Assembly: GCF_004216695.1 (NCBI RefSeq)
Contig: NZ_SGXC01000001.1
Span: 744,001 to 808,000, forward strand
Direction: 5' to 3'
Origin: Pigmentiphaga kullae
GTDB taxonomy: Bacteria > Pseudomonadota > Gammaproteobacteria > Burkholderiales > Burkholderiaceae_B
DNA: 64,000 bases
Each line of letters starts with the position of its first letter. Position 1 is the first letter of the stretch. The notes under the pieces are model-generated. The model was not told where the DNA came from and made no database searches. It worked only from the letters and a program-made list of their open reading frames with translations. Below are positions 1,428 to 46,312 of the stretch, one piece after another. A program made the translations under genes and the position numbers.

Positions 1428-2408
1428 ATGCACTTCCCCACCCGCCACAGGCTGGCCCTGGCCGCCGCCTGCACGCTGCTAGCCGCGCCCGCCGTCCAGG
1501 CCCAGGGCAACTTTCCCAGCCAGCCGGTCAGGATCATCGTCGGCTCGGAGGCCGGCAGCGCGCCCGACGTGCTGGCCCGCGTGCTGGGCAAGGAACTGTC
1601 CGCGGGACTGGGGCAGGCCATCATCGTCGAGAACCGCGCCGGCGCCACCGGCACCATAGGCGCCAATGCGGTGGCCTCGGCCGCGCCCGACGGCTACACG
1701 CTGCTGATGGGCACGGTGTCCAACATCGCGCTGGCCCCATCCTTCTACCCCATCAAGTACAAGCCCACCGAAAGCTTCACCCCCATCAGCATGGTCGCCT
1801 CGGTGCCGCTGGTGCTGGTGGCGTCCCCCGCCACCGGCATCGCCAGCGTCGAACAGTTGCGCGCCAAGCTGAAACAGGCTGCCAAGGGTTCGTACAGCTA
1901 TTCGTCGCCCGGCGTGGGCGGCCCCCAGCACCTGGCCGGCGTGCTGCTGGGCAAGCAGATGGGCACGGAACTGCTGCATGTTCCCTACAAGAGCGGCGGC
2001 GCGGCGCTGACCGCGGTGGCGGGCGGCGAGACCCAGATCGGCTTCGCCGGCATCGCCGCCGCCATCGGCCTGGTGCAGGCCAAGCGCGTGACACCGCTGT
2101 TCGTGACCGCCGGCCAGCGTTTCCCGCAATTCCCCAACGTGCCGTCGGCGCCGGAAGCCGGGCTGCCCGAGCTGGACGTGGACAACTGGCACGCGCTGTT
2201 CGCGCCGGCCGGCCTGCCCGCGCCGGTGCGCGCCACGCTGGAGGCGGCGGTGAACAAGGCCTTGCAGTCTCCCGAGGTGAAAAAGCAGTTCGAATCGCTG
2301 GGCGCCGCGCCCACGGGCAGCACCGGCAAGGAACTGGCCGAAAAAGTCACCGCGGAAACCGCGCGCTGGACGAAAATCGTCGACGACAACGGCATCAAGG
2401 CACAGTAG
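1428..2408 (+). CDS. Bug-family periplasmic solute receptor
   Basis: 326-residue extracytoplasmic binding protein of the Bug/TctC family, which captures small carboxylates or aromatic acids in the periplasm. A signal peptide with a Leu/Ala-rich core ends at about residue 25 (AVQA). The mature protein begins with the usual FPSQPVRIIVG stretch, then the ENRAGATGTIG and PDGYTLLMG motifs and the VPYKSGG segment typical of the family. An AGGAG ribosome site lies 7 bases before the ATG. No TctA/TctB membrane genes are nearby, so it is an orphan receptor that must borrow a permease or act as a sensor. It sits between an aldehyde dehydrogenase and a sulfatase whose start codon directly abuts its stop. 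Confidence 0.93.
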   Translation: MHFPTRHRLALAAACTLLAAPAVQAQGNFPSQPVRIIVGSEAGSAPDVLARVLGKELSAGLGQAIIVENRAGATGTIGANAVASAAPDGYTLLMGTVSNIALAPSFYPIKYKPTESFTPISMVASVPLVLVASPATGIASVEQLRAKLKQAAKGSYSYSSPGVGGPQHLAGVLLGKQMGTELLHVPYKSGGAALTAVAGGETQIGFAGIAAAIGLVQAKRVTPLFVTAGQRFPQFPNVPSAPEAGLPELDVDNWHALFAPAGLPAPVRATLEAAVNKALQSPEVKKQFESLGAAPTGSTGKELAEKVTAETARWTKIVDDNGIKAQ

Positions 2409-3857
2409 ATGAAACCCTCCAACCTGCTGATCATCATGGACGACGAGCACAACAAGAAGGTGCTCGGCTACAACGGCCATCCCATGGTCCGCACTCCCAA
2501 CCTGGACCGGCTGGCGGCGCGCAGCACCTCGTTCGAGGCCGCCTATTCCAGCTCGCCCATCTGCGTGCCGGCGCGGGCCGCCTTCGCCACCGGCCGCCAC
2601 GTGCACGAGACGGGCTACTGGGACAACGCCATCGCCTACGACGGCCGCGTCCCGAGCTGGGCCCACGCGCTGCGCGACGCCGGCCGGCTGGCGGTGTCCA
2701 TCGGCAAGCTGCACTATACCGGCGACGACATCGACGGCGGCTTCACCGAGCAGATCATCCCCATGCACATCGAGGCCGGGGTGGGCGACCTGTACGGTCT
2801 GATACGCGACCCGCTGCCCATCCGCCACCAGTCGGCCGACCTGGCCAAGAGCATCGGGCCCGGCGAAAGCAGCTATACCCGCTACGACCGCGACATCACC
2901 GACAAGACGGTCGAGTGGCTGCAGGCGCGCGGCCGGCAGCGCCAGGACCAGCCGTGGGTGCTGTTCACCTCCTACATCGCGCCCCATTCGCCGCTGATCG
3001 CGCCGCCCGAGTTCTACGCGATGTACGACCCCCAGGCCATCCCGCTGCCCAAGCGCGCATCGGGCCCGCTGCATCCCTGGATACAGGCCTGGAACGACTG
3101 CTATCGCTTCGACTCGCATTTCGAAAGCGACGAGCAGCGGCGCATCGCCATCGCCTCGTACTTCGGACTGTGCTCGTTCCTGGACCACAACGTCGGACGC
3201 ATCCTGCACGCGCTGGAGACCAGCGGACTGGCCGCCGACACCCGCGTCATCTTCCTGTCCGACCACGGCGACAACCTGGGCTCGCGGTCGCTGTGGGGCA
3301 AGTCGACCATGTACGAGGAATCCGCCGGCATCCCCATGCTGGCCAGCGGCCCCGGCTTCGAGGCCGGCCGCAAGGTGCGCACGCCGGTCTCGCACGTGGA
3401 CATGTATCCCACCGTCATGCAGGCGGCCGGACTGGCCTGCCCCGCGGGGCTGCCCGGCAAGTCCCTGCTGGAGATCGCCGCCGGGCCGGACGACGCCCAC
3501 CGCACCATCCTGAGCGAATACCACGCGGCCGGTTCGGTCAGCGCCGCCTACATGCTGCGCCGTGGCCACCACAAGTACATCCACTACACCGGCTACGCGC
3601 CCGAGCTGTTCGACCTGGAACAGGACCCCGAGGAATTGCACGACCTGGCGGGCAAGCCCGAAAGCGCGCCGCTGCTGGCCGGGTTCGAGACGCACCTGCG
3701 CGGCCTGCTCGACCCCGAGGCCGTGGACCGGCGTGCCAAGCGGGACCAGGCAGCGCTGATCGTCCAGCACGGCGGCGCCGAGCGCATCCTGAAGCGGGGC
3801 GGCAGCAGCTACACCCCCATCCCGGGCGAAGAGGTCAAGCTGCTCAATGAACAATGA
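2409..3857 (+). CDS. Sulfatase (formylglycine-dependent sulfohydrolase family)
   Basis: 482 residues, alkaline-phosphatase superfamily. It hydrolyses a sulfate (possibly phosphate or phosphonate) ester using a formylglycine made from Cys52 in the motif C-V-P-A-R followed by AAFATGR. Metal ligands are visible as the N-terminal MDDEHN pair and the C-terminal SDHGDN. No signal peptide is seen, so it is predicted cytoplasmic. It starts on the base after the Bug receptor stop (TAG-ATG) and overlaps the following b561 gene by 11 bases, so the three are probably translated together. First of four sulfatases in the window, each beside a Bug receptor. Whether it is an aryl- or alkyl-sulfatase cannot be told by eye. 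Confidence 0.88.
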   Translation: MKPSNLLIIMDDEHNKKVLGYNGHPMVRTPNLDRLAARSTSFEAAYSSSPICVPARAAFATGRHVHETGYWDNAIAYDGRVPSWAHALRDAGRLAVSIGKLHYTGDDIDGGFTEQIIPMHIEAGVGDLYGLIRDPLPIRHQSADLAKSIGPGESSYTRYDRDITDKTVEWLQARGRQRQDQPWVLFTSYIAPHSPLIAPPEFYAMYDPQAIPLPKRASGPLHPWIQAWNDCYRFDSHFESDEQRRIAIASYFGLCSFLDHNVGRILHALETSGLAADTRVIFLSDHGDNLGSRSLWGKSTMYEESAGIPMLASGPGFEAGRKVRTPVSHVDMYPTVMQAAGLACPAGLPGKSLLEIAAGPDDAHRTILSEYHAAGSVSAAYMLRRGHHKYIHYTGYAPELFDLEQDPEELHDLAGKPESAPLLAGFETHLRGLLDPEAVDRRAKRDQAALIVQHGGAERILKRGGSSYTPIPGEEVKLLNEQ

Positions 3858-21180: not shown

Positions 21181-21243
21181 ACTGCCCCGCCAACCGGTGG
21201 GCCGTCCCGACAACCACGTAGGAACCTCACACGGAGATTCACC

Positions 21244-24148: not shown

Positions 24149-24751
24149 TCATGTTTCGGCCAACCGCTGGATCTCCTCCAGCCGGCCCACCTCGGCCAGC
24201 AGCCGCAGGTTGTGCAGGGCAGCCGTGTGCACCGCTGGACTGGCGGCGCCACAGGCGTCCTCGACCACGGCCGAATGCCAGCCCAGGTCGGTCGCGTGGC
24301 GGACGGTGTGCTCCACCACCGAGTTGGTGGCCACCCCGCCCACGAGCAGCAGCGACGGCCGCATCGCATCGAGCATGGTCTCCAGCCCGGAGCGGAAGAA
24401 CGCATTGATGCGGTTGTGCGTCACCACCGGCTCGCCCGCCATGGGCGCAAGCGCTTCCAGGAATTGCGCCCCCCAGCTCCCCTCGGCCATGACCGCCTGC
24501 GCCACCACTGTCCTGAAGATGGCGCAGTTCTGTGTCACGTCGGAAAAATCCGGGCGATAAGCGATGCGCACGTGCACCACCGGCCATCGCCGCCGGCGCC
24601 CCAGATCCAGCAGGCCGCGCGCGCCCCGCACCACCGCCGGCTGCGCGGCGCCGTCGCCGGCCACGCCGAAGGCGAACCTGCCGTCCGGATGCAGGACTTC
24701 GTTCTGGTAGTGCAGCGCCAGCACGACGGGGCGCGAGAAATCGAGAGACAT
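24149..24751 (-). CDS. Isochorismatase-fold protein lacking the canonical catalytic triad
   Basis: 200 residues. The fold is recognisable from VVLALHYQNEVL, NRINAFFRSGLETML and LLLVGGVATNSVVEHTVRHA. By eye-alignment the three catalytic positions of cysteine hydrolases are changed: Asp is His14, Lys is His112 and the nucleophile Cys is Val145. True isochorismatases can lack the Cys, but loss of Asp and Lys as well is unusual. It may be a binding protein, a pseudoenzyme or use different chemistry. It overlaps the beta-subunit stop by one base (TGATG), so it is tightly bound to the Rieske operon. Confidence 0.8.
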   Translation of the reverse strand: MSLDFSRPVVLALHYQNEVLHPDGRFAFGVAGDGAAQPAVVRGARGLLDLGRRRRWPVVHVRIAYRPDFSDVTQNCAIFRTVVAQAVMAEGSWGAQFLEALAPMAGEPVVTHNRINAFFRSGLETMLDAMRPSLLLVGGVATNSVVEHTVRHATDLGWHSAVVEDACGAASPAVHTAALHNLRLLAEVGRLEEIQRLAET

Positions 24752-25266
24752 CACAGGAACACCTGGAGGTTCTCGTGGATCGCGTCGCAGTTGACCAGGT
24801 CCACCCGTTTCATCTCGATCCGGAACGACCCGTCCGCGGCGGGATCCTCGCGCAGCGTGTGCGTATAGCTGCCGCCGAACGCGCGCTGGCTGTCGGCCCG
24901 CCATTCGAGCATCTGGAACGACGAACGGACCACGATCGTTCCGGGGCCCGGGTCGATCACCGATACGTTGCCTATCGTCCTCGTCCCATGCGTGGGCGGC
25001 TGTTGCGACCAGTTCCGGTGGTTGGCCAGCCGGCGCGCGCGCACGCTGCGCAGCAGCGCGTCCTCGTGGAACAGGGAAACCTGGGTACGGGCGTCCTGCT
25101 GGCCGCGCATGCGCGGGACCCAATACATGCCCGTGGGGGTGAACAGCCGCAGCCATTCGTCCCAGGCGTTGGCATCCAGCAGCCGCGCCTCCAGGAACAG
25201 GAACTGCTCGACCCTGTGCCGCTGCCGGATCGCCTCGTCCAACTGCGCCGCTCCGATCCCGTTCAT
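24751..25266 (-). CDS. Aromatic-ring-hydroxylating dioxygenase beta subunit
   Basis: 171 residues of the small-subunit (NTF2-like) family: EQFLFLEARLLDANAWDEWLRLFTPTGMYW and FHEDALLRSVRARRL are standard phrases. It has no metal and supports the alpha3beta3 assembly. The start at 25266 is preceded by GGGGGAG; an ATG at 25281 would add five residues but has no good site. It overlaps the alpha-subunit stop by 4 bases (ATGA). Confidence 0.92.
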   Translation of the reverse strand: MNGIGAAQLDEAIRQRHRVEQFLFLEARLLDANAWDEWLRLFTPTGMYWVPRMRGQQDARTQVSLFHEDALLRSVRARRLANHRNWSQQPPTHGTRTIGNVSVIDPGPGTIVVRSSFQMLEWRADSQRAFGGSYTHTLREDPAADGSFRIEMKRVDLVNCDAIHENLQVFL

Positions 25267-26594
25267 GCCACTCCCCCGCATCCTGCCCCACCTTCGGTCA
25301 TCAAGGCCTTCCAGGCCACGAACTGGTTGCGTATGGGCAGCTCGCTCGTGCCGTTGACGGCGACTTTCCCGCCCGGGATGTCCCGGTCGGTGCCACAGTA
25401 ACGGTGCATGCTGACCCAGTCCCCGCCGTCGAGCCGGTTGCCTTTCTGCACCCGGGTGTACAGCTCCACGTCGTCGGGCATCACATTGGACGACGGGGAA
25501 TTGATGGTGTTGGCGTAAGTCACGGCGCGCTCGAACACGGCCTCGGGCGCCCCCTTGAGCCGAAAGGTGACGATCTCGACCAGGGTGCGATCGACCGCGA
25601 CGGGCCGGATGACGCGGAACTGCTGGAACACCGTATGGGGCGACCCGCTGCCGTAGATGATGGTGTTGTGCAGGTTCATGCCCAGTATTTCCCGCGCCCG
25701 CGCCTCGCCCACCGCGGCGGCCAGGCTTTCATGGTGGGCACGGCTGGTCGGATCCCGGTCCGCGCCGCCGGGATCGAAGATCCCTTCCATGTAGCCGTGC
25801 CCGTGGTCGAAGGCGTGCACCGCCAGCTTCTCCCAGAACTGGTAGGGCTCGCCGTTGCCCGCCATGATGTGCAGCACGAACGGCATGTCCCGGCCGGCCA
25901 TCGAGGCCTCGTACTCGTCGCGGGCCGCGACGACGGAGGACTCGTGCGTGACCGCGGCATGCATGGTGTCGTGCAGGTTTTCGTAGAAAATCTTCCAGTT
26001 GGAGTTCTGCCAGACGCGGAACACGCCGCCGGCCACCTCCACCTCGCCCACAGGCGAGCGGTCGCACAGATTGTCGATCGCCGCCTTCGCCCCGCCCAGG
26101 AAATCCACCAGATCGTCGCCGCCCTGGGCCAGGCTGGCGAAGACAAAGCCTCGATAACTGGCCACGCGGGCGACGCGCCGCAGCCAGAACGCCTCGTCGG
26201 CGGGATCGAAGGCCGTGCCTTCGTAGCCGGCCCGCAGCGGCGCCGACAGCATCGGGCCGTGGAGCCTGAACGTCCAGGCGTGGTAGGGACAACGGAAATG
26301 CCGGTCCACGTGCCCGGCGCCCGGCGGCACGATCTGCGCGCCCTTGTGCGGACAGCGGTTGTACAGCACGTGGGGCTTGCCATCCGCCGCCCGTACCAGG
26401 ATGACGTCCTGCCGGCCGATGCGGCTCGTCAGATAATCGCCGGCTTGCGGGATCTGGCTTTCGTGCCCGACGTAGACCCATACGCGGCCATAGATGCGCT
26501 CCATCTCCAGGTCGAATATGCCGGGGTCCACATAGACCGCGCGGTGCACCTTGTCCGGCTTGACCATGTCAGCCAGTTGTTCGTTCGTGTACAA
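25263..26594 (-). CDS. Rieske aromatic-ring-hydroxylating dioxygenase alpha subunit, TTG start
   Basis: 443 residues. The Rieske [2Fe-2S] ligands are Cys81/His83 (CPHKGAQ) and Cys102/His105 (CPYHAW). The mononuclear iron site is ENLHDTMHAAVTH with bridging Asp209 and ligands His212 and His217. It inserts both atoms of O2 into an aromatic ring to form a cis-diol. The sequence style is like benzoate/anthranilate/salicylate-type oxygenases. The start is deduced from AAGGAG six bases before TTG at 26594; the longer frame to 26612 also begins with TTG but contains the ribosome site. No dedicated reductase or Rieske-type ferredoxin lies in the operon. Confidence 0.92.
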   Translation of the reverse strand: MYTNEQLADMVKPDKVHRAVYVDPGIFDLEMERIYGRVWVYVGHESQIPQAGDYLTSRIGRQDVILVRAADGKPHVLYNRCPHKGAQIVPPGAGHVDRHFRCPYHAWTFRLHGPMLSAPLRAGYEGTAFDPADEAFWLRRVARVASYRGFVFASLAQGGDDLVDFLGGAKAAIDNLCDRSPVGEVEVAGGVFRVWQNSNWKIFYENLHDTMHAAVTHESSVVAARDEYEASMAGRDMPFVLHIMAGNGEPYQFWEKLAVHAFDHGHGYMEGIFDPGGADRDPTSRAHHESLAAAVGEARAREILGMNLHNTIIYGSGSPHTVFQQFRVIRPVAVDRTLVEIVTFRLKGAPEAVFERAVTYANTINSPSSNVMPDDVELYTRVQKGNRLDGGDWVSMHRYCGTDRDIPGGKVAVNGTSELPIRNQFVAWKALMTEGGAGCGGVA

Positions 26595-26621
26595 CACAAT
26601 CTCCTTACGCAAGGATTCCTG

Positions 26622-27854
26622 TCAGTCCTTCCCTTCGCTTTTCGCCCAGGACTGCATCAAGACGTTCGACGGCAGGCTTTCATCCAGCAGCTTGGCCGCC
26701 GTTTCCCGGCCCGCCACCGGCAGGCCCGCGGGATCCAGCACGCCGATCTGCACCAGCACCGACGCCTGGTCCCAGTAGATATGCTCGTGGCAGAGCTTGT
26801 CGCCGCGGAACTTGACGACCGCGACCAGCGGAATCTCCACGTAGCGGCCGGTGGGCGCGATGCCGGGCAGCATCCATTCGATCTCTTCGTCGTGGGTGAA
26901 GCAGAACAGCTGCTCGTCCACGATCTGGGTCGCGCCCACGGTGCGCGAAATGGGAACGAGCCGCGTATCCTTGGGCGTGGACGGAATGAAGTGATGCTTG
27001 TAGAAGCGATGGAGCTGCCGGGCGCCGACGCCGCCGGTCAGGGTGGGGATATGGTTGACGTAGGGCTCGGCCACCATGGTGCGCATGGTCTCGGCCGCGT
27101 CGCGCACCTCGAACTCCAGCTCGGTATGGCGGTCCCACAGCGCCGACAGGTCATAGCGGGGCCCGATGTGCTCGTGCAGGAACGCAATCGTGCGTTCGTA
27201 GCTGACCAGGGCGGCGGGCTTGCGGTAGAGCGGGCTGCCCTCGCGGGCGAACGCGTGGTCGGCGTCCGGATAGCGGTGCACCCGGGCATCGGGCGATCCG
27301 GCCAGGTGCGCGGCGATGCGCGCCACCGTCGCGGGCGGACAGTAACGGTCGGCGTCGCCGAAATGCAGCATGAGCGGCCGCGCCGGCGGATGGTCCAGGT
27401 GCGCCTCGATACCCACGCCGTAGAAACCCGCGGCGCAATCGACCAGCGCCCCGGCGGCGGCCAGATAGGCCAGCCGGCCGCCCAGGCAGTAGCCCACCGC
27501 CGCCACCTGCCCCGTCGTCGCGGGCGACTCCCGCAGCGTCCGCGCGGCCAGCGCGACGTCGGCCAGGCCGACGTCTACGTCGAATCGTTCCAGCAGCGCG
27601 AAAGCCTGCGCGTGGTCCTCTTCGCCGTAGCCCAGATCGACCCCCGGCCGGATCTGCGAGAACAGGTCCGGAACCAGCACCACGTATCCCTCTTCGGCAT
27701 AGCGTTCGGCCAGCTTGCGCATGGTCTCGTTGACGCCGAAGATCTCGTGGCACAGCACCAGCCCGGGGCCATGGCCGGAAGCCGGCATCGCGCAGTACGC
27801 CGACGTTGCCGACCCGTCCGGGCGGGTCATGGGAATCGTGGTCTGGTGCTTCAT
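26622..27854 (-). CDS. Dienelactone hydrolase fused to a SnoaL-like domain
   Basis: 410 residues in two domains. Residues 1 to about 235 are a dienelactone hydrolase: Glu37 (CHEIFGVN), nucleophile Cys123 (GYCLGG), Asp in FGDADRYCPP and His in DADHAF. Residues from about 250 form an NTF2/SnoaL-like domain (LHRFYKHHFIPSTPKDTRLVPISRTVG, then KLCHEHIYWDQASVL). The hydrolase opens lactones from ring-cleavage routes; the added domain may be a second catalytic or ligand-binding module. First gene of the minus-strand operon, 27 bases before the Rieske alpha gene. Confidence 0.88.
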   Translation of the reverse strand: MKHQTTIPMTRPDGSATSAYCAMPASGHGPGLVLCHEIFGVNETMRKLAERYAEEGYVVLVPDLFSQIRPGVDLGYGEEDHAQAFALLERFDVDVGLADVALAARTLRESPATTGQVAAVGYCLGGRLAYLAAAGALVDCAAGFYGVGIEAHLDHPPARPLMLHFGDADRYCPPATVARIAAHLAGSPDARVHRYPDADHAFAREGSPLYRKPAALVSYERTIAFLHEHIGPRYDLSALWDRHTELEFEVRDAAETMRTMVAEPYVNHIPTLTGGVGARQLHRFYKHHFIPSTPKDTRLVPISRTVGATQIVDEQLFCFTHDEEIEWMLPGIAPTGRYVEIPLVAVVKFRGDKLCHEHIYWDQASVLVQIGVLDPAGLPVAGRETAAKLLDESLPSNVLMQSWAKSEGKD

Positions 27855-28107: not shown

Positions 28108-29082
28108 ATGACCTTCACGTTCGGGAAACTGGCGCTGGCCGCCACGCTTGCCCTGGCCGCCATCGGCGCGCGGGCGGAGACCTGGCCGGCACGCCCGGTG
28201 CGCATCATCGTGCCGTACAACGCCGGCACGCCGCCCGACATCAGCAGCCGCATCATCGCGCAGAAGCTGACCGTCAAGCTGGGCCAGACCTTCTACGTCG
28301 ACAACAAGCCCGGCGCCTCGGGCAGCCTGGCGGCGGGCGACCTGGACCGCTACCCGGCCGACGGCTATACCGCGATGACGCTGCTGACCCCGGTGGTGGT
28401 CGGACCGGCGCTGCTGTCCTCGTTCAAGAAAGACTTCGCCCGCGACTACGCGCCCGTCGGCCAGTACGACTGGACCTACAGCGTGCTGGTCGTCACGCCG
28501 TCCCTGCCCGTGCACGACGTGAAAGGATTGATCGAACTGCTGCGCGCCAAGCCCGATACCTACAGCTTCCCCTCGGGCGGCTACGGCACGCCGGCGCACC
28601 TGGCGGGCGAGCTCTTCAAGCAGCGCTACGGCGTCACGGCCACCCACGTGCCCTACAACCAGTTCACGGCCGGACTGGCCGACCTGGTGGCCGGCCGGGT
28701 GAACTTCATGTTCCTGACCAGCACGGTGGCGGCGGCGCAAGTCCAGGGCGGCAAGGTCAAGGCGCTGGCCATCGCCTCGCGCGACAGCCGGCTGCCCGGC
28801 CTGCCCGACGTGCCGACCATGGAGGAACAGGGCTTCAAGGGCTTCGACGTGCGCAACTGGGACGGCTTCGTCATGCGCAAGGAAACGCCCAAGGACGCGG
28901 TGGCCGGGTTCACGCGGGCGCTGAACCAGATCCTGGCCGATCCCGAGACGCGCAAGGCGCTGGCCGACGCGGGCGCCGACCCGGTCCCGAACACCACTGC
29001 GGAACAGTTCGGCGCGCTGATCGCCAGCGAGCAGGCCCGGCTGACGGACCTGGTGCGCCAGACCGCCATCAAGATCGACTGA
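28108..29082 (+). CDS. Bug-family periplasmic solute receptor
   Basis: 324 residues. Signal peptide to about residue 23 (AIGARA); the mature chain starts with ETWPARPVRIIVPYNAGTPPDISSRI and has DNKPGASGSLAAG and PADGYTAM. AAAGGAGA lies 6 bases before the ATG. First gene of a plus-strand operon with a sulfatase, a XylT-like ferredoxin and a catechol 2,3-dioxygenase, so its ligand may be an aromatic sulfate ester or the released phenol. No TctAB partner nearby. Confidence 0.93.
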   Translation: MTFTFGKLALAATLALAAIGARAETWPARPVRIIVPYNAGTPPDISSRIIAQKLTVKLGQTFYVDNKPGASGSLAAGDLDRYPADGYTAMTLLTPVVVGPALLSSFKKDFARDYAPVGQYDWTYSVLVVTPSLPVHDVKGLIELLRAKPDTYSFPSGGYGTPAHLAGELFKQRYGVTATHVPYNQFTAGLADLVAGRVNFMFLTSTVAAAQVQGGKVKALAIASRDSRLPGLPDVPTMEEQGFKGFDVRNWDGFVMRKETPKDAVAGFTRALNQILADPETRKALADAGADPVPNTTAEQFGALIASEQARLTDLVRQTAIKID

Positions 29083-29100
29083 CTTCTTCCGGATACCAGG

Positions 29101-31052: not shown

Positions 31053-31997
31053 ATGGCGATCACAGGAGTGATGCGGCCGGGACACGTTTGCATACGGGTT
31101 CTGGAGATCGAGCCGGCGGTACGGCATTACGTCGATACCATCGGACTCAGGGAGGTCATGCGCGACACCGCCGCCGACGGCAGCGCGCGGGTGTTCCTGA
31201 AAGCCTGGGACGAAGCGGACCACCACAGCGTGGTGCTGCGCGAGGCCGATGAAGCCGGCATGGATTACATGGGCTGGAAAGTGGACTCGGAAGCCACGCT
31301 GGACAAGCTCTCGGCCGATGTCGAGGCCAGCGGCCTGGCGACCGACATGGGCTGGATCAGGGAAGGCGAGCATCCGATGACGGGACGGCGTTTTCGCTTC
31401 ACCGTTCCGACGGGGCACGTGATGGAGCTGTACGCGCACCGCGAGACGCCCGGATGCGCGGTGGGCTACCTGAACCCCGATCCGTGGCCGGACGACATGC
31501 ACGGCATGGGCGCGCGCCGCTTCGACCACTGCCTGCTGTACGGCGACGACCTGGCAGGCACCTTCAAGCTTTTCACCGAGGTGCTGGGCTTCAACCTGAC
31601 CGAGGCGGTGGTGGCCGGGCCGGACGAGCAGATGATAGGCGCCTTCCTGAGCTGCGCAACCAAGGCCCACGACGTGGCCTTCATCCAGCAACCGGTCAAG
31701 AACAAGCTGCATCACGTTTCGTTCCTGCTGGACAACTGGGGCGAAGTGCTCAAGGCGGCCGACATCATCTCCAAGCGGCGCGTATCGCTGGACATCGGGC
31801 CGACGCGCCATGGCATCACGCGCGGCGAAACGGTGTACTTCTTCGATCCGAGCGGCAACCGCAACGAGGTGTTCGCCGGCGGCTATACCTGGTACCCGGA
31901 CAAGCCGGTGATCAAGTGGACGGCCGAGGAGCTGGGCACGGGCATCTTCTATCACGACCGCAAGCTCAACGAGAAATTCCTGAGCGTGTTTACCTGA
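31053..31997 (+). CDS. xylE: Catechol 2,3-dioxygenase
   Basis: 314 residues, two-domain extradiol dioxygenase. Fe(II) ligands are His159 (RRFDHCLLYG), His220 or His221 (KLHHVSF) and Glu272 (GNRNEVF). The C-terminal segment with DIGPTRHGITRGETVYFFDPSG and FYHDRKLNEKF closely follows classic XylE/DmpB enzymes. It cleaves catechol next to the diol to give 2-hydroxymuconic semialdehyde. AAGGAGA precedes the ATG. The downstream meta-pathway genes (semialdehyde dehydrogenase or hydrolase, hydratase, aldolase) are not in this operon and are not evident elsewhere in the window. Confidence 0.94.
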   Translation: MAITGVMRPGHVCIRVLEIEPAVRHYVDTIGLREVMRDTAADGSARVFLKAWDEADHHSVVLREADEAGMDYMGWKVDSEATLDKLSADVEASGLATDMGWIREGEHPMTGRRFRFTVPTGHVMELYAHRETPGCAVGYLNPDPWPDDMHGMGARRFDHCLLYGDDLAGTFKLFTEVLGFNLTEAVVAGPDEQMIGAFLSCATKAHDVAFIQQPVKNKLHHVSFLLDNWGEVLKAADIISKRRVSLDIGPTRHGITRGETVYFFDPSGNRNEVFAGGYTWYPDKPVIKWTAEELGTGIFYHDRKLNEKFLSVFT

Positions 31998-33178: not shown

Positions 33179-34096
33179 ATGACGGATATCGCCCCCACCG
33201 GAAAGATACTCGGGGCCACGGTGCGCGGCCTGGACCTTTCCCGGCCGCTTGCCGAGCAGGATTTCGCCGCGCTGCTGGCGGCGCTGGGCGCGCACGGCGT
33301 CCTGCGCTTCCCGGCGCAGGCGATCACGCCGGCGCAGCTGCGGGATTTCTCGGCCCGTTTCGGCGGCCTGCAGCGGACGGTGTCCGACGCCAACGAACCC
33401 GGTATTCCCGAGGTCAGCATTCTTTCCAATATCGTCGAGAACGGCAGGCCGATCGGCATCGCCGACGCCGGCCAGGACTGGCACACCGACATGTCCTACA
33501 ACCCGACCGTGGGTTTCGTGAACGTGCTGCACGCCCTGAAGGTGCCGCGCCGCGACGGCCGCGCGCTGGGCTCGACCAGCTTCGCCAACATGCACGCCGC
33601 CTACGAAGACCTGCCCGCCGACGTCAAGCGTGAACTGGACGGCGCCACCGCCGTGCACGACTTCAACAAATTCTGGGAGAACATGCGGGCGCGGCCGGGC
33701 AGCGAGCGGCCGCCGCTTTCGCCTGAACAACGGGCCAAGCGCCCCCCTTCGACGCATCCGGTGTTCCTGGCGCACCCCATTACCGGCCGCAAGGTGCTGT
33801 ACTGCAATCCCGGCTACGCCATCCGGATCAACGAACTCGATGCGCACCGCAGCGACGAGATGCTGGAATTCCTGTTCGCGCACCAGTTGCAGGCCAAGTA
33901 CCAGTACACGCACGAATGGACCGAGGGCGACGTGCTGATGTGGGACCACATCGGCACGCTGCACAACGCCTGGCCCGACTACCTGCCCCACGAGCACCGG
34001 CTGATCAAGCGCTGCCAGGTCATGGCCGACCGCATCTTCGACCCGGCCTTCCTGCCGACCGCGATCCGCCCCGCGCGCGCCGCGGCCGCGCACTGA
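33179..34096 (+). CDS. TauD/TfdA-family Fe(II)/2-oxoglutarate dioxygenase
   Basis: 305 residues. The facial triad begins with His102 and Asp104 (WHTDMSY); the distal His is in GTLHNAWPD and the 2-oxoglutarate-binding Arg is in HRLIKR. Members hydroxylate taurine, 2,4-D, alkyl sulfates and similar compounds, releasing sulfite, a phenol or an aldehyde. AGGA lies 5 bases before the ATG at 33179; the frame is open further upstream, but no better start is seen. It leads an operon with an FMN hydroxyacid oxidase, an FAH-family protein and a SnoaL-like protein. The alkyl-sulfate option is attractive given the sulfatases nearby. Confidence 0.88.
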   Translation: MTDIAPTGKILGATVRGLDLSRPLAEQDFAALLAALGAHGVLRFPAQAITPAQLRDFSARFGGLQRTVSDANEPGIPEVSILSNIVENGRPIGIADAGQDWHTDMSYNPTVGFVNVLHALKVPRRDGRALGSTSFANMHAAYEDLPADVKRELDGATAVHDFNKFWENMRARPGSERPPLSPEQRAKRPPSTHPVFLAHPITGRKVLYCNPGYAIRINELDAHRSDEMLEFLFAHQLQAKYQYTHEWTEGDVLMWDHIGTLHNAWPDYLPHEHRLIKRCQVMADRIFDPAFLPTAIRPARAAAAH

Positions 34097-38609: not shown

Positions 38610-38621
38610 ACGGAGACAGGC

Positions 38622-39254: not shown

Positions 39255-40046
39255 ATGACCGCCATGGATGCGTCCACCCTGCGCATACGCGATACCACGC
39301 TGCGCGTCGCGCGCGCCGGCCGAGGCCAGCCGCTCTTGTTCCTGCACGGCCCCGGCGGGCTGGCCGAGTCGCAGGCCTGGCTGCCGGCGCTGGCCGAGCA
39401 CTACGACTGCCACGCCCCCGAACATCCCGGCTACGGCGGCGGCGCCGTCCCGGCCTGGCTGGACAACGTCCGCGACCTGGCCAATTTCTACCTGGACTAC
39501 CTGGACCAACAGAAGCTGCGCGGCGTGCATCTGGTGGGCTACGACCTGGGCGGCTGGATCGCGGCCGAGCTGGCGGTGCGCAACAGCCACGCGCTTGCCT
39601 CGCTCACCCTGATCTCGGCCCAGGGCATCCACGTGCCGGACGTGCCCACCACCGACGTTTTCCTGCGCACCGACGACGATCTCGTGCGCGACACCTACCA
39701 CGACCCCGCGCTGGCCGCGCGTGTGCTCGAACGCGCGCCGACCGAGGAAGAACTGGACGTGGCCGTGCGCAACAAGGAGATCACCGCCCGTCTGACCTGG
39801 CAGCCGCGCGGCCACGACCCCGACCTGGCCAAGTGGCTGCATCGCATCGCCGTGCCCACGCTGGTCGTGTGGGGCGCCAGCGACCGCATCCTGCCCGCCG
39901 AGTACGGCCGCGCCTGGCGCGACCGCATCGCCCGCGCCACGCTGGCCGAGATGGGCGATTGCGGCCATGCGCCCCACCTGGAACGCACGGCCGAGACCGT
40001 GGCCGCGCTGACACGATTCACCGCCTCGACCGGGAGCCCCGCATGA
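39255..40046 (+). CDS. Alpha/beta hydrolase with an Asp nucleophile
   Basis: 263 residues. The nucleophile elbow reads G-Y-D-L-G-G with Asp97 in place of the usual Ser; the oxyanion motif is HGPGG; the acid is in VVWGASDRILP and the His in CGHAPHLERT. Asp nucleophiles mark haloalkane/haloacetate dehalogenases and epoxide hydrolases, which attack carbon to form an alkyl-enzyme ester, though some others exist. Between a flavin reductase and a flavin monooxygenase, epoxide hydrolysis or dehalogenation is a reasonable proposal. GGAGA before the ATG; its stop overlaps the next start (ATGA). Confidence 0.87.
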   Translation: MTAMDASTLRIRDTTLRVARAGRGQPLLFLHGPGGLAESQAWLPALAEHYDCHAPEHPGYGGGAVPAWLDNVRDLANFYLDYLDQQKLRGVHLVGYDLGGWIAAELAVRNSHALASLTLISAQGIHVPDVPTTDVFLRTDDDLVRDTYHDPALAARVLERAPTEEELDVAVRNKEITARLTWQPRGHDPDLAKWLHRIAVPTLVVWGASDRILPAEYGRAWRDRIARATLAEMGDCGHAPHLERTAETVAALTRFTASTGSPA

Positions 40047-41179
40047 AGTTCTTCAATTTCCACCTGATGCCCTATCGCCATGCGGACCTGGAAGCGATCC
40101 AGAAGAACGGCTCGGCCTGGGTGACTTTCTCCAACCGCCACTACGATCCCCAGCTGGGCGCCGAGCTCTACCACGAGTACCTGGACCAGATGGAATACGC
40201 CGACCAGCTGGGCTTCGACGGCGTCTGCCTGAACGAGCACCACCAGACGGCGTACGGACTGATGCCCATTCCCGGCGTGCTGGCCGGCGCGCTGGCGCGC
40301 AGCGTCAAGCGCGCGCGCATCGCCGTGCTGGGCCGCGCGCTGCCGCTCTTGAACAACCCGCTGATGGTGGCCGAGGAATTCGCCATGCTGGACAACCTGA
40401 CGCGCGGCCGCTTCATCGCCGGCTTCGTGCGCGGCATCGGCGCCGAATATCACGCCATGGGCATCAACCCGGCCGAGTCGCAGGCGCGCTTCGCCGAGGC
40501 CCACGACCTGATCGTGCGCGCGTGGACCCAGCCCGGCCCCTTCTCGTACACCGGCAAGCACTACCAGTTCAACTACGTGAACCCCTGGCCCCGGCCCTAC
40601 CAGGACCCGCATCCGCCGATCTGGGTGCCGTCGCAGGGCTCCAGCAGCACCATCCGCTGGGCCGCCGGACTGCGCTACACCTACTGCCAGACCCTGAGCC
40701 CCATCGCCACGGTGAAGAAATTCTTCGACATGTACCGCGAGGAAGCGCGCAAAGCCGGCTACGAAGCGGGCCGCGACCAGCTCGCCTGGTCCAACTGCAT
40801 CTACGTGGCCGAGACCGACGAGCGCGCCATGGCCGAGGCCAAGCCGCACATGGAGGCCCTGATGACCCGCCTCTTGAAGATGCCCATGGAAATGCTGCTG
40901 CCGCCGGGTTACACCAACATCGAAGCCATGAAGCGCATCAAGTCCACGCGCGCGGTCGGCGCCAAGCCGCAGTCGGTGGAAGACCTGGTGAAGTCGGGCC
41001 TGGTCATCATCGGCAGCCCCGCCACCGTGCGCGAGAAACTGGCCGAGTACGAGGACCTGGCCGGCTTCGGCACCACGCTGACCAAAACCCAGTTCGGCAC
41101 CATGCCCGACGGCATGGTCCGCGCCAACATGCAGGCCATCGCGCAGGAAATCATTCCGCACTTCAAGGACGCCGCCTGA
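40043..41179 (+). CDS. LLM-class (luciferase-like) flavin-dependent monooxygenase
   Basis: 378 residues, TIM-barrel bacterial-luciferase family: FDGVCLNEHHQTAYGLMPIP, NNPLMVAEEFAMLDNLTRGRF and the usual IVRAWTQPGPFSYTGKHY. It uses free FMNH2 and O2, most probably supplied by the reductase at 38622. Reactions in the family include sulfonate and amine oxidation, Baeyer-Villiger oxidation and chelator degradation. Coupled by ATGA overlap to the Asp-nucleophile hydrolase. The substrate is unknown. Confidence 0.9.
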   Translation: MKFFNFHLMPYRHADLEAIQKNGSAWVTFSNRHYDPQLGAELYHEYLDQMEYADQLGFDGVCLNEHHQTAYGLMPIPGVLAGALARSVKRARIAVLGRALPLLNNPLMVAEEFAMLDNLTRGRFIAGFVRGIGAEYHAMGINPAESQARFAEAHDLIVRAWTQPGPFSYTGKHYQFNYVNPWPRPYQDPHPPIWVPSQGSSSTIRWAAGLRYTYCQTLSPIATVKKFFDMYREEARKAGYEAGRDQLAWSNCIYVAETDERAMAEAKPHMEALMTRLLKMPMEMLLPPGYTNIEAMKRIKSTRAVGAKPQSVEDLVKSGLVIIGSPATVREKLAEYEDLAGFGTTLTKTQFGTMPDGMVRANMQAIAQEIIPHFKDAA

Positions 41180-41211
41180 ACGGCGAACGACATCAAGGAG
41201 GAGACAGACAC

Positions 41212-42198
41212 ATGGCTTACACGCTATCGCGCGCCTTCGCGCCCTGGCTGGCGCTGGCGGGCATCCTGCTGGCCCCCGCCGCCGTGGCCGACACCACGGC
41301 CGGCTACCCCGAGCGGCCGGTCAAGCTGGCGCTGCCCTTCCCGCCCGGCGGCTCGGCCGACACCATCACGCGCAGCATGGCCGAACGGCTCCAGGCCCAG
41401 CTGCACCAGCCCTTCCTGATCGAGAACCGGCCCGGGGCGGCGGGCAACGTCGCCACCCGCTACATCGCCAAGGCGCCGGCGGACGGCTACAACCTGCTGG
41501 TGGGCGTGACCGGCGCCATGGCCATCAACCCCAACCTCTACACGCTGGACTACGACCCCGCCCGTGACTTCGTGGCGGTCTCGATGGTGGCGCGCGCGCC
41601 GGTCGTCGTCGTGGCCGACCCGCAGGCCGGCATAGGCAGCATCAAACAACTGATCGAACAGGCCAAGGCCAGGCCCGGCATGCTGACCTACGCCACCAAT
41701 GGCGTGGGCACCAGCCACCACCTGGCGGCCGAACTGTTCCGCCAGGCCGCCGGCCTGGACATGCGCAACGTGCCGTACAAGGGCACGCCCGAAGCCTTGC
41801 AGGACATCATCGGCGGACGCGTGCCGCTGGGTTTCATGGACCTGACCGCTTCCATTCCGCTGATCGCCTCGGGCAAACTGAAGGCGCTGGCCACCACGGG
41901 CATCAAACGCACGCCCGCGCTGCCCGACGTGCCCACCGTGGCCGAGGCCGGCGTGCCCGGCTTCGCGGCCGACACCTGGGTGGGCATCTTCGCGCCCAAG
42001 GGCACGCCCCAACCCATCGTGGAAAAGCTCAGCGCGGAAATGAAGACCGCGCTGGCGCTGCCCGAACTGCGCGCCCGCGCGCAGACGCAAGGCCTGGAAG
42101 TGGCAGGCAGCACGCCGGCGGAACTGCAGCGCTTCCTGCAGGAAGAATCGGCGAAGTGGAAACGGGTGGTGAACGAGGCGGGGATCAAGCTGCAATAG
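41212..42198 (+). CDS. Bug-family periplasmic solute receptor
   Basis: 328 residues. Signal peptide to about residue 26 (PAAVA); mature motifs are YPERPVKLALPFPPGGSADTITR, ENRPGAAGNVATRYIAKAPADGYNLLVG and MRNVPYKGTPEAL. AAGGAGGAGA precedes the ATG. Last gene of the FMN reductase/hydrolase/LLM monooxygenase operon; it likely captures that pathway's substrate. It converges on the MarR gene, with 34 bases between the stops. Confidence 0.93.
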   Translation: MAYTLSRAFAPWLALAGILLAPAAVADTTAGYPERPVKLALPFPPGGSADTITRSMAERLQAQLHQPFLIENRPGAAGNVATRYIAKAPADGYNLLVGVTGAMAINPNLYTLDYDPARDFVAVSMVARAPVVVVADPQAGIGSIKQLIEQAKARPGMLTYATNGVGTSHHLAAELFRQAAGLDMRNVPYKGTPEALQDIIGGRVPLGFMDLTASIPLIASGKLKALATTGIKRTPALPDVPTVAEAGVPGFAADTWVGIFAPKGTPQPIVEKLSAEMKTALALPELRARAQTQGLEVAGSTPAELQRFLQEESAKWKRVVNEAGIKLQ

Positions 42199-42664: not shown

Positions 42665-42714
42665 GAGCGGGGAAAGGGGCGGCGGAGCGGGAAAGGTAGC
42701 ACAGGATACCGGGA

Positions 42715-43617: not shown

Positions 43618-43727
43618 GGCGATTTACATCGGCTCCCTGCAAGTGTTTCCGGTCGGCGGCACTATGCCAGAGCAGGTGCGGTCGGTAAAGTGCCTCGCAT
43701 CCCAACGCCGACGCGCTTTCCGCCGCC

Positions 43728-44696
43728 ATGAAACGCACGCACGCCATTGCCGCCTGTCTCGCGGCGTTATCCCTGTCCGCCCACGCGGCCGGCACGTTTC
43801 CCTCGCACCCGGTCACCTTCGTCGTCCCTTTTCCGCCCGGCGGGGGCGTCGATCCCGTCGCGCGGCTGGTCGGAACGAAGCTGGCCGAGAAATGGGGCCA
43901 ACCCGTCATCGTCAGCAACCGTCCGGGCGCCAGCGGCAACATCGGCAGCGATCTGGTGGCGCGGGCGGCCCCCGATGGCCATACGCTGCTGGTCACGACC
44001 AACAGCTTCCTGATCAACCCCCACGTGCTGAGCCCGGCGAACAAGGCCAAGGCGGACGCCGTGGCCGACTTCAAGCCCGTGGCGATGCTGTCGACCACGC
44101 CGCTCGTCGCCCTGGTCCACCCCTCGGTGCCGGCCAGAAACCTGGCGGACCTGGCGGCGCTCGCGCGCAAGGAGCCGGGACTGCTGTTCGCCGGGTCCGG
44201 CAACGGATCGCCCATGCACATGGCCGGCGAACTGTTCAAGAAGGCGGCCGGCGTGTCGATGACCTATTCGCCCTACCGGGGCATCGGACTGGCCATGAAC
44301 GACGTCCTGGGCGGGCACGTGAAAGTCATCTTCGTGGGCCTGGCCGGCGGCAAGGCGCAGATCGATTCGGGCAAACTCGTCCCGCTGGCCACGCTCGAAA
44401 ACAGGCGGACGCCCCTGCTTCCCGAGGTGCCCACGGCCGAGGAGCAAGGCTTCCCAGGCACGCTGATGGACGCCTGGTTCGGCATGTACGGCCCCAGGGA
44501 CCTGCCGCCCGGCCTTGTCGCGCGGATCAACGAAGACGTCAACGCCGTCCTGAAAGACCCCGCCGTCGCGAAACAGCTGGCCGAGATGAGCCAGGCGCCC
44601 GAGCCCATGAGTCCCTCGGCCTTCGCCGCCAAGGTGAAAGCCGATTACGACCGCTATGGCCGCATCATCCGCGACGCGCACATCCAGCCGGAATGA
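43728..44696 (+). CDS. Bug-family periplasmic solute receptor
   Basis: 322 residues. Signal peptide to about residue 21 (LSAHAAG); the mature chain has FPSHPVTFVVPFPPGGGVDPVAR, SNRPGASGNIGSDLVARAAPDGHTLLV and MTYSPYRGIGLAM. The stop overlaps the sulfatase start (ATGA at 44693-44696), so receptor and sulfatase are translationally coupled. This is the tightest of the four Bug-sulfatase pairs and strongly implies a shared substrate. Confidence 0.93.
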   Translation: MKRTHAIAACLAALSLSAHAAGTFPSHPVTFVVPFPPGGGVDPVARLVGTKLAEKWGQPVIVSNRPGASGNIGSDLVARAAPDGHTLLVTTNSFLINPHVLSPANKAKADAVADFKPVAMLSTTPLVALVHPSVPARNLADLAALARKEPGLLFAGSGNGSPMHMAGELFKKAAGVSMTYSPYRGIGLAMNDVLGGHVKVIFVGLAGGKAQIDSGKLVPLATLENRRTPLLPEVPTAEEQGFPGTLMDAWFGMYGPRDLPPGLVARINEDVNAVLKDPAVAKQLAEMSQAPEPMSPSAFAAKVKADYDRYGRIIRDAHIQPE

Positions 44697-46312
44697 TCAT
44701 GCCGCGCCCCCGCTCCGCCCCGAACATCCTGCTGATCATGACGGATCAGCACCGCGCCGACCATCTCGGCTGCTACGGCAACGGCGTGCTGCGCACGCCT
44801 CACATCGACGCCATCGCCGGGCGCGGCGTCCGCGCCGAACACTTCTATGTGGCCAATACCACCTGTATGTCGAACCGCGCCACGCTGATGACGGGCCGCA
44901 TGCCCTCGCGGCACGGCGTGGTCCACAACGGGATCAATCTCGATCGTGGCCACGTCACGTTCGTCGACCTTCTGAAAGACGCGGGCTATGCCACCGCGCT
45001 GATAGGCAAGTCCCATCTCCAGGCCTTCGGCTACGACGGCCCGGGCCGGCGCGCCTGGACGAACACGGGAACGGGAACACCGCCGAATCCCGTGCTGCGG
45101 GACGCCGTGCGCGCCACCCGCTCAGGCCCGCAATACCTGAACGAGTGGACACCGCTCTGGCGAGAGGGCGGCCGTTCGGGGGTGGACACCCCTTACTATG
45201 GCTTCGATCACGTCGAGCTCTGCACCCTGCACGGCGATCAGGTCGGCGGCGACTACGATGCGTGGCTGGCCCGCCACCATGCCGATCCAGCCAGCCTGCG
45301 CGGCGCCGCCAACGCCATTTCCGGCCCGCGCCATGGCGCTCCCCAGGCCTGGCGGACGCGCATGCCCGAACATCTCTATCCCTCCGCCTACATCGGCGAG
45401 CGCACATGCGCCTGGCTGGAAGAACATGCGCGCCAACGCGCCACCCAGCCCTTCTTCCTGCAGTGCTCGTTCCCCGATCCCCACCATCCCTATACCCCGC
45501 CCGGGCGCTTCTGGGACATGTACCGGCCGCAGGACATCCCGTTGCCGCCGACATTCTTCCAGCAACCGCGGCCGGATGCGATCGAGCGCATCCATGGCCG
45601 CACACGCAATGGCCAGAGCCGCGAAGGCACGGCCGCGTTTTCCGTATCCCCGGCCGAATGCCGGGAAATCATCGCGCTGACCTACGGCATGATCTCGATG
45701 ATCGACGAACAGGTCGGACGCATCGACGCCACCCTCGACCGGCTGGGCCTGCGGGACGACACCGTGGTGATCTTCACCAGCGACCATGGCGACCTGATGG
45801 GGGACTACGGCACGATGCTCAAGGGCCCCATCCATGCGCAGGGCGTCATACGCGTGCCCTTCATCTGGCGCGAAGGACAAGGAAGGCACGCAGGTACGAC
45901 GCTGGATATGCCCGCCGGCACCCTGGACATCGCGCGGACCATCCTGGAGAAGGCGGGTGTCGCCCCGTACAACGGCCTCCAGGGGCTCAGCCTCCTGCCC
46001 TGGCTGGAAGGCCGCCACGGAGGCCCGCCTCGCCGGCGCGGCATGGTCATCGAAAGCGAGCAGCCGCGCCAGACCGATCCCGATCTTCCCCGGCTGCGGG
46101 TACGCAGCCTGGTGACCGACCGGTGGCGGATCACGCTTTCCAATCACCCGCAGGCGGGCGAACTGTACGACCTGCGCGAGGACCCCCTGGAGACGCACAA
46201 CCTCTGGGCTTCGGCGGATGCCCGCGCCCGGCGGGAAGACCTCCTGGTGCAACTGGTCCAGGAGATGCTGGATCTGTCTGATGAATCGCCGCTGCCCGCC
46301 GCCGTAGCCTGA
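44693..46312 (+). CDS. Sulfatase with variant C-M-S-N-R active-site motif
   Basis: 539 residues. Paralogue of the 19588-21180 enzyme: NILLIMTDQHRADHLGCYGN, PYYGFDHVELC, FPDPHHPYTPPGRFW and TSDHGDLMGDYG. The formylglycine position is Cys58 in C-M-S-N-R (then ATLMTGR): the Pro of the C-x-P-x-R recognition motif is Ser. All metal-site motifs are intact. Either the maturase tolerates this, another maturase is used, or the Cys acts unmodified. The ATG at 44693 overlaps the Bug stop; a second ATG at 44699 is possible. No signal peptide. Confidence 0.88.
   Translation: MIMPRPRSAPNILLIMTDQHRADHLGCYGNGVLRTPHIDAIAGRGVRAEHFYVANTTCMSNRATLMTGRMPSRHGVVHNGINLDRGHVTFVDLLKDAGYATALIGKSHLQAFGYDGPGRRAWTNTGTGTPPNPVLRDAVRATRSGPQYLNEWTPLWREGGRSGVDTPYYGFDHVELCTLHGDQVGGDYDAWLARHHADPASLRGAANAISGPRHGAPQAWRTRMPEHLYPSAYIGERTCAWLEEHARQRATQPFFLQCSFPDPHHPYTPPGRFWDMYRPQDIPLPPTFFQQPRPDAIERIHGRTRNGQSREGTAAFSVSPAECREIIALTYGMISMIDEQVGRIDATLDRLGLRDDTVVIFTSDHGDLMGDYGTMLKGPIHAQGVIRVPFIWREGQGRHAGTTLDMPAGTLDIARTILEKAGVAPYNGLQGLSLLPWLEGRHGGPPRRRGMVIESEQPRQTDPDLPRLRVRSLVTDRWRITLSNHPQAGELYDLREDPLETHNLWASADARARREDLLVQLVQEMLDLSDESPLPAAVA

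What the first reader, a model, noticed from the sequence alone, without database searches (positions are those of the whole stretch)
1428..46312. Sulfatase-Bug receptor module repeated four times
Every sulfatase in the window is next to a Bug receptor: 1428-3857 (Bug then sulfatase, abutting), 19588-22239 (sulfatase then Bug), 28108-30654 (Bug then sulfatase) and 43728-46312 (Bug then sulfatase, overlapping ATGA). Gene order differs and the sulfatases are not all close relatives, so this is repeated association rather than simple tandem duplication. None has a signal peptide although the receptor is periplasmic, implying import of an intact sulfate (or phosphonate) ester followed by cytoplasmic hydrolysis. 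A Bug-fed sulfate-ester scavenging system would extend the known ligands of this receptor family beyond carboxylates.
Basis: partly seen in the sequence, partly recalled or inferred. Interest (0 to 1): 0.75.

Follow-up and report, generated by a model that had tools for sequence, protein, structure and literature searches.

The report
Paired receptor and sulfatase uptake modules
Most cytoplasmic sulfatase genes found in this bacterium and its close relatives sit beside a gene for a periplasmic capture protein of the Bug family, which suggests that these bacteria import sulfate-ester compounds whole and cut the sulfate off inside the cell, and gives a concrete guess at what some of their many unexplained Bug receptors bind.

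Summary
All four window sulfatases directly neighbour a same-strand Bug (TctC) gene. Genome-wide 15 of 18 do (11 of 14 without the window), against 24 of 299 random non-Bug genes, 13 of 30 CoA-transferases and 8 of 30 amidohydrolases. Of the other three, one has a Bug one gene away, one has a TRAP transporter, and one is the only enzyme with an export-like start. Of 60 sites drawn at random from those listed for same-family genomes, 46 as called (47 corrected) are adjacent, against 5 of 235 background genes. Sulfatase and Bug distances co-vary (r = 0.60, 0 of 2000 permutations), yet gene order changes 7 times on the sulfatase tree. In 69 non-Burkholderiales loci no adjacent same-strand Bug was found; 9 have TRAP parts nearby. 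Best reading: a capture-import-desulfate module whose orphan Bug borrows a shared TctAB permease (7 TctA genes). Ligand and substrate are untested; phosphonate or phosphate diesters remain possible.

The parts
1428..2408 (+). Bug1, periplasmic TctC-family receptor, module 1
   Evidence: PF03401 176 bits; signal-peptide-like N-terminus by inspection
2409..3857 (+). S1, cytoplasmic sulfatase, motif CVPAR, nearest solved relatives are choline sulfatases
   Evidence: PF00884 149 bits
19588..21180 (+). S2, cytoplasmic sulfatase, motif CMPNR, module 2
   Evidence: PF00884 150 bits
21244..22239 (+). Bug2, receptor of module 2
   Evidence: PF03401 165 bits
22283..23284 (+). AraC-type regulator downstream of module 2 (resembles AndR, below its cut-off)
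   Evidence: NCBIfam 155 bits, cut-off 350
24751..27854 (-). three genes between modules 2 and 3: ring-hydroxylating dioxygenase beta and alpha subunits and a dienelactone hydrolase family protein
   Evidence: PF00866, PF00355/PF00848, PF01738
28108..29082 (+). Bug3, receptor of module 3
   Evidence: PF03401 167 bits
29101..30654 (+). S3, cytoplasmic sulfatase, motif CGPSR, close to solved 4UPI and 4UPL 'sulfatase family' proteins
   Evidence: PF00884 163 bits
30674..31030 (+). 2Fe-2S ferredoxin-like gene, same strand, 19 bases after S3
   Evidence: ferredoxin-type NCBIfam matches, below their cut-offs
31053..31997 (+). catechol 2,3-dioxygenase downstream of module 3 (start uncertain; 31158 in my gene call)
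   Evidence: TIGR03211 399 bits, cut-off 320, scanned from 31158
43728..44696 (+). Bug4, receptor of module 4
   Evidence: PF03401 192 bits
44693..46312 (+). S4, cytoplasmic sulfatase, motif CMSNR (no Pro), ATGA overlap with Bug4
   Evidence: PF00884 143 bits

Best explanation
Each pair is a capture-import-desulfate module. A Bug receptor in the periplasm binds an organic anion carrying a sulfate ester (shown: it is a TctC-family receptor; inferred: its ligand). The receptor hands it to a shared TctAB membrane unit encoded elsewhere (inferred; 7 TctA genes in the genome, none in the window). A cytoplasmic alkaline-phosphatase-superfamily sulfatase hydrolyses the ester (shown: intact catalytic residues, no export signal; inferred: substrate), releasing sulfate and an alcohol or phenol for catabolism. 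Different modules serve different esters, many with a regulator of their own nearby; module 3, next to a catechol 2,3-dioxygenase, probably serves an aryl sulfate.
For: Direct same-strand adjacency in 15 of 18 own-genome sulfatases against 24 of 299 random non-Bug genes (Fisher 9e-13); more than CoA-transferases (13 of 30, p = 0.008) or amidohydrolases (8 of 30, p = 0.0002). Without the four window modules that prompted the question: 11 of 14, p = 2e-9, 0.05 and 0.003. In same-family genomes 46 of 60 against 5 of 235; 24 of 33 clusters at 70% identity. Gaps are 65 bases or less in 41 of 47 pairs. Sulfatase and Bug divergence correlate: r = 0.60 for 16 own pairs, 0.69 for 59 pairs, 0 of 2000 permutations. 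Bug-less members often have other uptake genes: TRAP DctP (own C3:90856, L254, L242), TAXI receptor (L213), NMT1-type ABC receptor (L208, L235), and TRAP parts within three genes in 9 of 69 non-Burkholderiales loci. One of those, L144 (Roseibium), also has a TctA gene convergent with the sulfatase and a Bug further on. Catalytic Cys in 77 of 78 rows, the last lacking that region. Aromatic ring-cleavage or hydroxylation genes near modules.
Against: No ligand or activity data. The sulfatase fold also covers phosphonate monoester and phosphodiester hydrolases, and none of the four reaches the cut-off of a named NCBIfam sulfatase. No TctA in the window. No pocket signature survives multiple testing. 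No formylglycine-generating enzyme was found in the genome apart from an EgtB-like match, so full sulfatase activity is not assured. Bugs also sit beside many other catabolic genes (13 of 30 CoA-transferases), and without the window modules the excess over these is only borderline (p = 0.05). Ten of 60 relatives' sites have no Bug next to the sulfatase or one gene away; for 5 of these I confirmed another uptake receptor, L259 has the same layout as one of them but was not scanned, and 4 (L225, L229, L230, L248) have none that I identified.
Confidence: 0.62

Rival explanations
1. Same import module, but the cytoplasmic enzymes are phosphonate monoester or phosphodiester hydrolases, and the Bugs carry phosphonates or phosphodiesters rather than sulfate esters.
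For: S3 matches phosphonate monoester hydrolase structures 2VQR and 2W8S at 208 bits and NCBIfam PehA, a phosphoric/sulfuric ester hydrolase, at 316 of 900 bits. Bug3 has a weak Phosphonate-bd match below cut-off.
Against: S3 is far closer to 4UPI and 4UPL, deposited as sulfatase family proteins (462 and 425 bits); S1 is closest to choline sulfatases. No phosphonate-catabolism family appeared among the 30 neighbouring proteins scanned one by one (the tally shows only 25 of 79 families).
Confidence: 0.15
2. The Bug brings in the unsulfated carboxylic acid of the same compound class (or the enzyme's product), and the sulfatase acts on esters that enter by another route or arise inside the cell; the adjacency reflects a shared catabolic regulon.
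For: Known TTT ligands are mostly carboxylates (PMC5812351, passages); the ligand loop is kept; Bugs also neighbour 13 of 30 CoA-transferases, and without the window modules the difference from these is only p = 0.05.
Against: At least three own-genome modules (L032, L035, L037) are a Bug-sulfatase pair with a divergent LysR next to the Bug, a minimal layout in which the enzyme is the only partner; the TRAP, TAXI and ABC replacements point to the sulfatase itself needing an uptake partner.
Confidence: 0.15
3. The adjacency is a by-product of very high Bug density plus inheritance of a few old gene pairs.
For: The PF03401 search had 422 first-look candidates in the own genome, 150 of them scored and all over cut-off; receptor and enzyme distances correlate.
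Against: Background rates are 24 of 299 and 5 of 235; gene order changes 7 times on the sulfatase tree and the Bugs come from several lineages; 24 of 33 sulfatase clusters at 70% identity are adjacent.
Confidence: 0.03
4. The Bug is a sensor or regulatory accessory for sulfatase expression, not a transport receptor.
For: Orphan receptors without permeases; a role in signalling was raised as one possibility for Bug27 (PMC5812351, passage).
Against: No sensor kinase family is among the 25 commonest of 79 families in the neighbour tally, where LysR regulators lead (rarer families are not shown). Cytoplasmic enzymes still need substrate import.
Confidence: 0.05

Closest known systems
Orphan Bug/TctC receptors of Bordetella-type Burkholderiales (review PMC5812351)
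   Same: Large receptor excess over TctA; many receptors without permease genes beside them
   Different: Here one enzyme class, cytoplasmic sulfatases, has a receptor beside it most of the time; I found no report of this pairing in the searches made
Arylmalonate decarboxylase-TTT gene clusters (Maimanakos et al. 2016, as described in PMC5812351)
   Same: Orphan TTT receptor near the enzyme in beta-proteobacteria and complete systems in alpha-proteobacteria; import-then-catalysis model
   Different: Substrate class there is carboxylated; here a sulfatase, and near the alpha-proteobacterial relatives seen TRAP parts are commoner than TTT
SlcHFG sulfolactate TTT system (cited in PMC5812351)
   Same: TTT system for a sulfur-containing organic anion
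   Different: Named as a complete uptake system for a sulfonate, not a sulfate ester with a sulfatase
Sulfatase-family structures 4UPI/4UPL and choline sulfatase 6FNY
   Same: S3 matches 4UPI at 462 bits, S1 matches 6FNY at 212 bits; catalytic residues kept
   Different: No receptor pairing known to me; S2 has only distant solved relatives (183 bits), and S4 was not searched

Membership tests
TctC/Bug receptor family (PF03401) | Profile match over cut-off along the whole receptor | tested here: met
   164-192 bits, cut-off 27, nearly full model length in all four
TctC/Bug receptor family (PF03401) | Export signal | tested here: met
   Signal-peptide-like N-termini in the four window Bugs by inspection; 41 of 60 sulfatase-linked Bugs pass a simple hydrophobicity threshold, 19 do not, start calls being uncertain
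TctC/Bug receptor family (PF03401) | Loop-1 motif with its conserved Asp (motif from PMC5812351, section 13) | tested here: met
   Asp kept in 15 of 15 own sulfatase-linked Bugs with that region aligned, of 16
Complete TTT transporter | TctA and TctB genes alongside the receptor | tested here: not met
   7 TctA matches in the genome, none in the window; TctB was not searched
Type I sulfatase (PF00884) | Profile match and Cys nucleophile in C-x-P-x-R | tested here: met
   143-163 bits; S1-S3 CVPAR, CMPNR, CGPSR; S4 deviates as CMSNR
Type I sulfatase (PF00884) | Metal-site and active-site residues | tested here: met
   Asp12 in 77 of 78; Lys100, His102, His255, Asp358, Lys371 in 78 of 78; His359 in 76 of 78
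Type I sulfatase (PF00884) | Cys converted to formylglycine | tested here: inconclusive
   No dedicated FGE or anSME found in the genome, only an EgtB-like match
Choline sulfatase (TIGR03417) | Score over curated cut-off | tested here: not met
   S1 300 bits, cut-off 433; others lower
PehA phosphoric/sulfuric ester hydrolase (NF045661) | Score over curated cut-off | tested here: not met
   S3 316 bits, cut-off 900; others lower
Organosulfate import module (proposed) | Receptor binds the sulfate ester that the enzyme hydrolyses | not testable with these tools
   Needs purified proteins

The most novel reading that the evidence does not exclude
Burkholderiales use a large, diversified set of modules, each a dedicated Bug receptor plus a cytoplasmic sulfatase, to import specific organosulfate esters whole; about sixteen of the Bugs of this genome are organosulfate receptors, the pairings formed repeatedly, and the enzymes work without any known formylglycine-generating enzyme in this cell.
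Probability: 0.5. Interest if true: 0.75.

Novelty: new variant of a known kind. Interest (0 to 1): 0.6.

Why it matters
Bordetella species carry roughly 50 to 210 Bug receptors with 2 to 8 TctA genes (PMC5812351, Table 3 in section 14), and few Bugs have a known ligand. A tight link to a single enzyme class gives a direct, testable ligand guess for a whole subset of them and predicts an uptake route for sulfate esters in Burkholderiales. If the cytoplasmic enzymes are active without a known maturation enzyme, this genome also becomes a place to look for the missing one.

Tried and rejected
Chance adjacency from high Bug density: rejected. Simple tandem duplication of one pair: rejected as the sole cause, given order changes and several Bug lineages, though receptor and enzyme co-vary, so some modules were probably duplicated whole.

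A pocket signature for sulfate: the residue before the loop-1 Asp is non-polar in 15 of 15 own sulfatase-linked Bugs, against polar in 26 of 55 others (p = 5e-4), but in relatives it is polar in 11 of 41 against 13 of 25 (p = 0.06). About 1600 column-by-class tests were run besides single-residue tests, so I do not claim it.

Sulfur-starvation regulation: 10 neighbouring LysR-type candidates gave no CysB-type NCBIfam match at E 1e-40 (7 of 10 had some match, 4 of these to PcaQ, all below cut-off). This weakens but does not exclude it.

Structure prediction and fold search were not run: the Bug fold is clear from sequence (Bug4).

Rows dropped or corrected: my gene caller missed the pair at C1:234382, in a stretch of about 58% GC; it was counted from six-frame search. 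In L265 an over-long sulfatase frame hid the Bug; it is counted only in the corrected total of 47 and in the cluster count. Five PF00884 sites (C2:693476, C2:1544183, C1:2712173, C1:2728358, C1:2704298) were left out of the 18 because they score 31 bits or less, or nothing, with my sulfatase model; what they are was not tested. The control families were the best-scoring 30 matches, not random ones, with 1.5 kb flanks. Ten of the 69 non-Burkholderiales loci end at the sulfatase.

Literature: searches (open-access papers only) listed no paper whose title or shown abstract reports a sulfatase-Bug pairing; only passages or sections of PMC5812351, PMC6277516, PMC6189696 and PMC3885589 were opened.
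Full report
Observation. The window is C1:744001-808000 of a 6.22 Mb genome in 5 contigs, GC 68.7%. Pfam confirms four TctC receptors and four sulfatases at the stated places. The modules are Bug-sulfatase with no gap (1428-3857), sulfatase-Bug with 63 bases (19588-22239), Bug-sulfatase with 18 bases (28108-30654) and Bug-sulfatase with an ATGA overlap (43728-46312). The PF00884 search places no other match in the window. Identities of the other three sulfatases to S2 are 51, 34 and 30%.

Is it more than chance in this genome? PF00884 marks 23 gene sites (25 hits, two genes appearing as two hits each). My sulfatase model, built from the four window proteins and iterated, scores 18 of them above 200 bits and the other five at 31 bits or less or not at all. 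Of the 18, 15 have a Bug as direct neighbour on the same strand: 14, and C1:234382, which the gene caller missed because it lies in a stretch of about 58% GC. C1:26932 has its Bug one short gene further on. C3:90856 has TRAP genes, DctP and DctM, upstream with a MarR-type regulator between. C3:325984 has no Bug neighbour; it is also the only one of 78 sulfatases examined with a signal-peptide-like, lipoprotein-like start, and its four nearest neighbours match no transporter family (two of the four match nothing). In 20 random stretches of 20 kb, 24 of 299 non-Bug genes have a same-strand Bug neighbour. As stricter controls, 13 of 30 CoA-transferase III genes and 8 of 30 amidohydrolase 2 genes do (the best 30 of 38 and of 41 matches). 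The sulfatase excess is significant against all three (Fisher 9e-13, 0.008 and 0.0002). Leaving out the four window modules that prompted the question, it is 11 of 14, with p = 2e-9, 0.05 and 0.003, so the excess over CoA-transferases is then only borderline.

Is it there in other genomes? In the same family 70 of 151 genomes, the own one included, have a close sulfatase match at E 1e-70. I drew 60 of 135 usable listed sites at random, from 36 genomes. Forty-six have a same-strand Bug neighbour, 47 after correcting L265, and three more (L236, L239, L241) have a Bug one gene away. Background in 20 random stretches from 11 genomes of the same family was 5 of 235. The Bug is upstream in 24 and downstream in 23, one site having both. 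After clustering the sulfatases at 70% identity, 24 of 33 clusters are adjacent and none is mixed. At least one of the sampled sites is adjacent in 29 of 36 genomes. In a broad draw over the order, 3 of 41 genomes have the enzyme at E 1e-60, the own genome included.

None of the 69 others has one, ten of these being cut off at the sulfatase. Nine of the 69 have a TRAP membrane part or a TAXI receptor within three genes, and a Pfam tally of 108 neighbours of 21 of the closer non-Burkholderiales loci gives DctM in 7 and NMT1_3 in 7 proteins. L144 (Roseibium) has, besides TRAP parts, a TctA gene convergent with the sulfatase and a Bug about 3 kb away. Among Bug-less sites of the own family, L208 and L235 have an NMT1-type ABC receptor, L242 and L254 a DctP receptor, and L213 a TAXI receptor. 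L259 has a gene of the same size at the same place as L213 but was not scanned. In L225, L229, L230 and L248 I identified no transporter.

Evolution. On a tree of 77 sulfatases, counting the 62 with a Bug, the upstream or downstream state changes 7 times (shuffled mean 20.0). In the own genome 16 sulfatase-linked Bugs among 73 need 10 changes, shuffled mean 14.5, with at least 4 forced by well-supported branches. So pairings arose or were rearranged several times, yet within lineages receptor and enzyme travel together: distance correlation 0.60 for 16 own pairs and 0.69 for 59 pairs, 0 of 2000 permutations as high. The 59 include orthologues, so the own-genome figure is the fairer one.

Enzymes and receptors. 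Active-site Cys, Arg, Asn, Lys, His and Asp positions are kept in 76 to 78 of 78 sequences. Motifs fall into groups CGPSR, CMPNR, CVPAR/CIPAR, CQP[AS]R and CMSNR, with two single variants and one row lacking the region. S3 is close to solved sulfatase-family proteins 4UPI and 4UPL (462 and 425 bits), S1 to choline sulfatases (212 bits), S2 only distantly to any (183 bits). None of the four reaches a named NCBIfam sulfatase cut-off. Bug4 matches Bug27 and other solved TctC proteins. TctA matches number 7 in the genome and none lies in the window, against at least 150 scored Bugs of 422 candidates, so these receptors are orphans in the sense of PMC5812351 (section 14).

Context. Of 76 neighbours at 12 out-of-window sites, 11 are LysR regulators; other families include PdxA, LigB, Rieske and homogentisate dioxygenase (individual PdxA and LigB genes). 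In relatives, 9 of 46 adjacent pairs have a divergent LysR directly before them by my model, which was built from two seeds and may undercount. Ten LysR-type neighbours match no CysB model at E 1e-40 and four match PcaQ below its cut-off. In the window, module 3 is followed by a ferredoxin-like gene and a catechol 2,3-dioxygenase, and ring-hydroxylating dioxygenase subunits and a dienelactone hydrolase lie between modules 2 and 3. I infer carbon catabolism of aromatic and other esters rather than only sulfur scavenging.

Maturation puzzle. The only FGE-domain match in the genome is an EgtB-like protein next to an EgtD-like gene (both names recalled from the sequence). No anSME match was found. 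A same-genus genome, G112, has a 399-residue FGE-type protein with an export-like N-terminus by inspection, beside a partial sulfatase match (46 bits); searching the own genome with it returns only the EgtB-like stretch. Of 25 relatives, 21 have some PF03781 match, 13 of them over 250 bits, so such enzymes are common in relatives although absent here. One study reports low but multiple-turnover activity of an unmodified Cys choline sulfatase and says that the E. coli machinery converting Cys was not yet identified (PMC6189696, passages).

What is known. PMC5812351 (passages, sections 13 and 14 part 1) lists TTT ligands, mostly carboxylates, with sulfolactate and nicotinamide among the exceptions, and describes decarboxylase-TTT clusters. 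A Bordetella pertussis paper mentions sulfatase-domain proteins as a possible local sulfate source (PMC3885589, passages); another, PMC6277516 (passages), saw no difference in sulfatase proteins between its strains. I found no report of a sulfatase-Bug pairing in the searches listed under tried and rejected.

Verdict. The association is real, strong and phylogenetically repeated; the mechanism of import and cytoplasmic ester hydrolysis is the best inference; the ligand is unproven.

Noticed in passing
own genome C3:924673-925383 (L045); L287:2042-3241: Eighteen Cys-type sulfatases but no formylglycine-generating enzyme or anSME found; the only PF03781 match looks like EgtB. A same-genus genome has an FGE-type protein with an export-like start beside a partial sulfatase match.
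   Followed up: partly
window 44693-46312 and own C1:203244, C1:473788: Sulfatases with CMSNR instead of C-x-P-x-R, 4 of 78 sequences (one in a relative, L260), all with an upstream Bug; may not be standard maturation targets.
   Followed up: partly
own genome C1:225100-245099 (L036): A Bug-sulfatase pair with 4-base overlap inside a stretch of about 58% GC, against 68.7% in the window, suggesting horizontal gain of a module.
   Followed up: partly
window 40043-42198: A luciferase-like monooxygenase directly followed by another Bug; a similar enzyme-receptor pair of a different kind.
   Followed up: no
window 33179-34096: TauD/TfdA-family dioxygenase; this family includes some alkylsulfatases (recalled), so it might act on sulfate esters too.
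   Followed up: no
L144:3995-9552: In a Roseibium locus a TctA gene (529 bits) lies convergent with the sulfatase and a Bug about 3 kb from it on the other strand; possibly a complete TTT system beside a sulfatase, with TRAP parts on the other side.
   Followed up: partly
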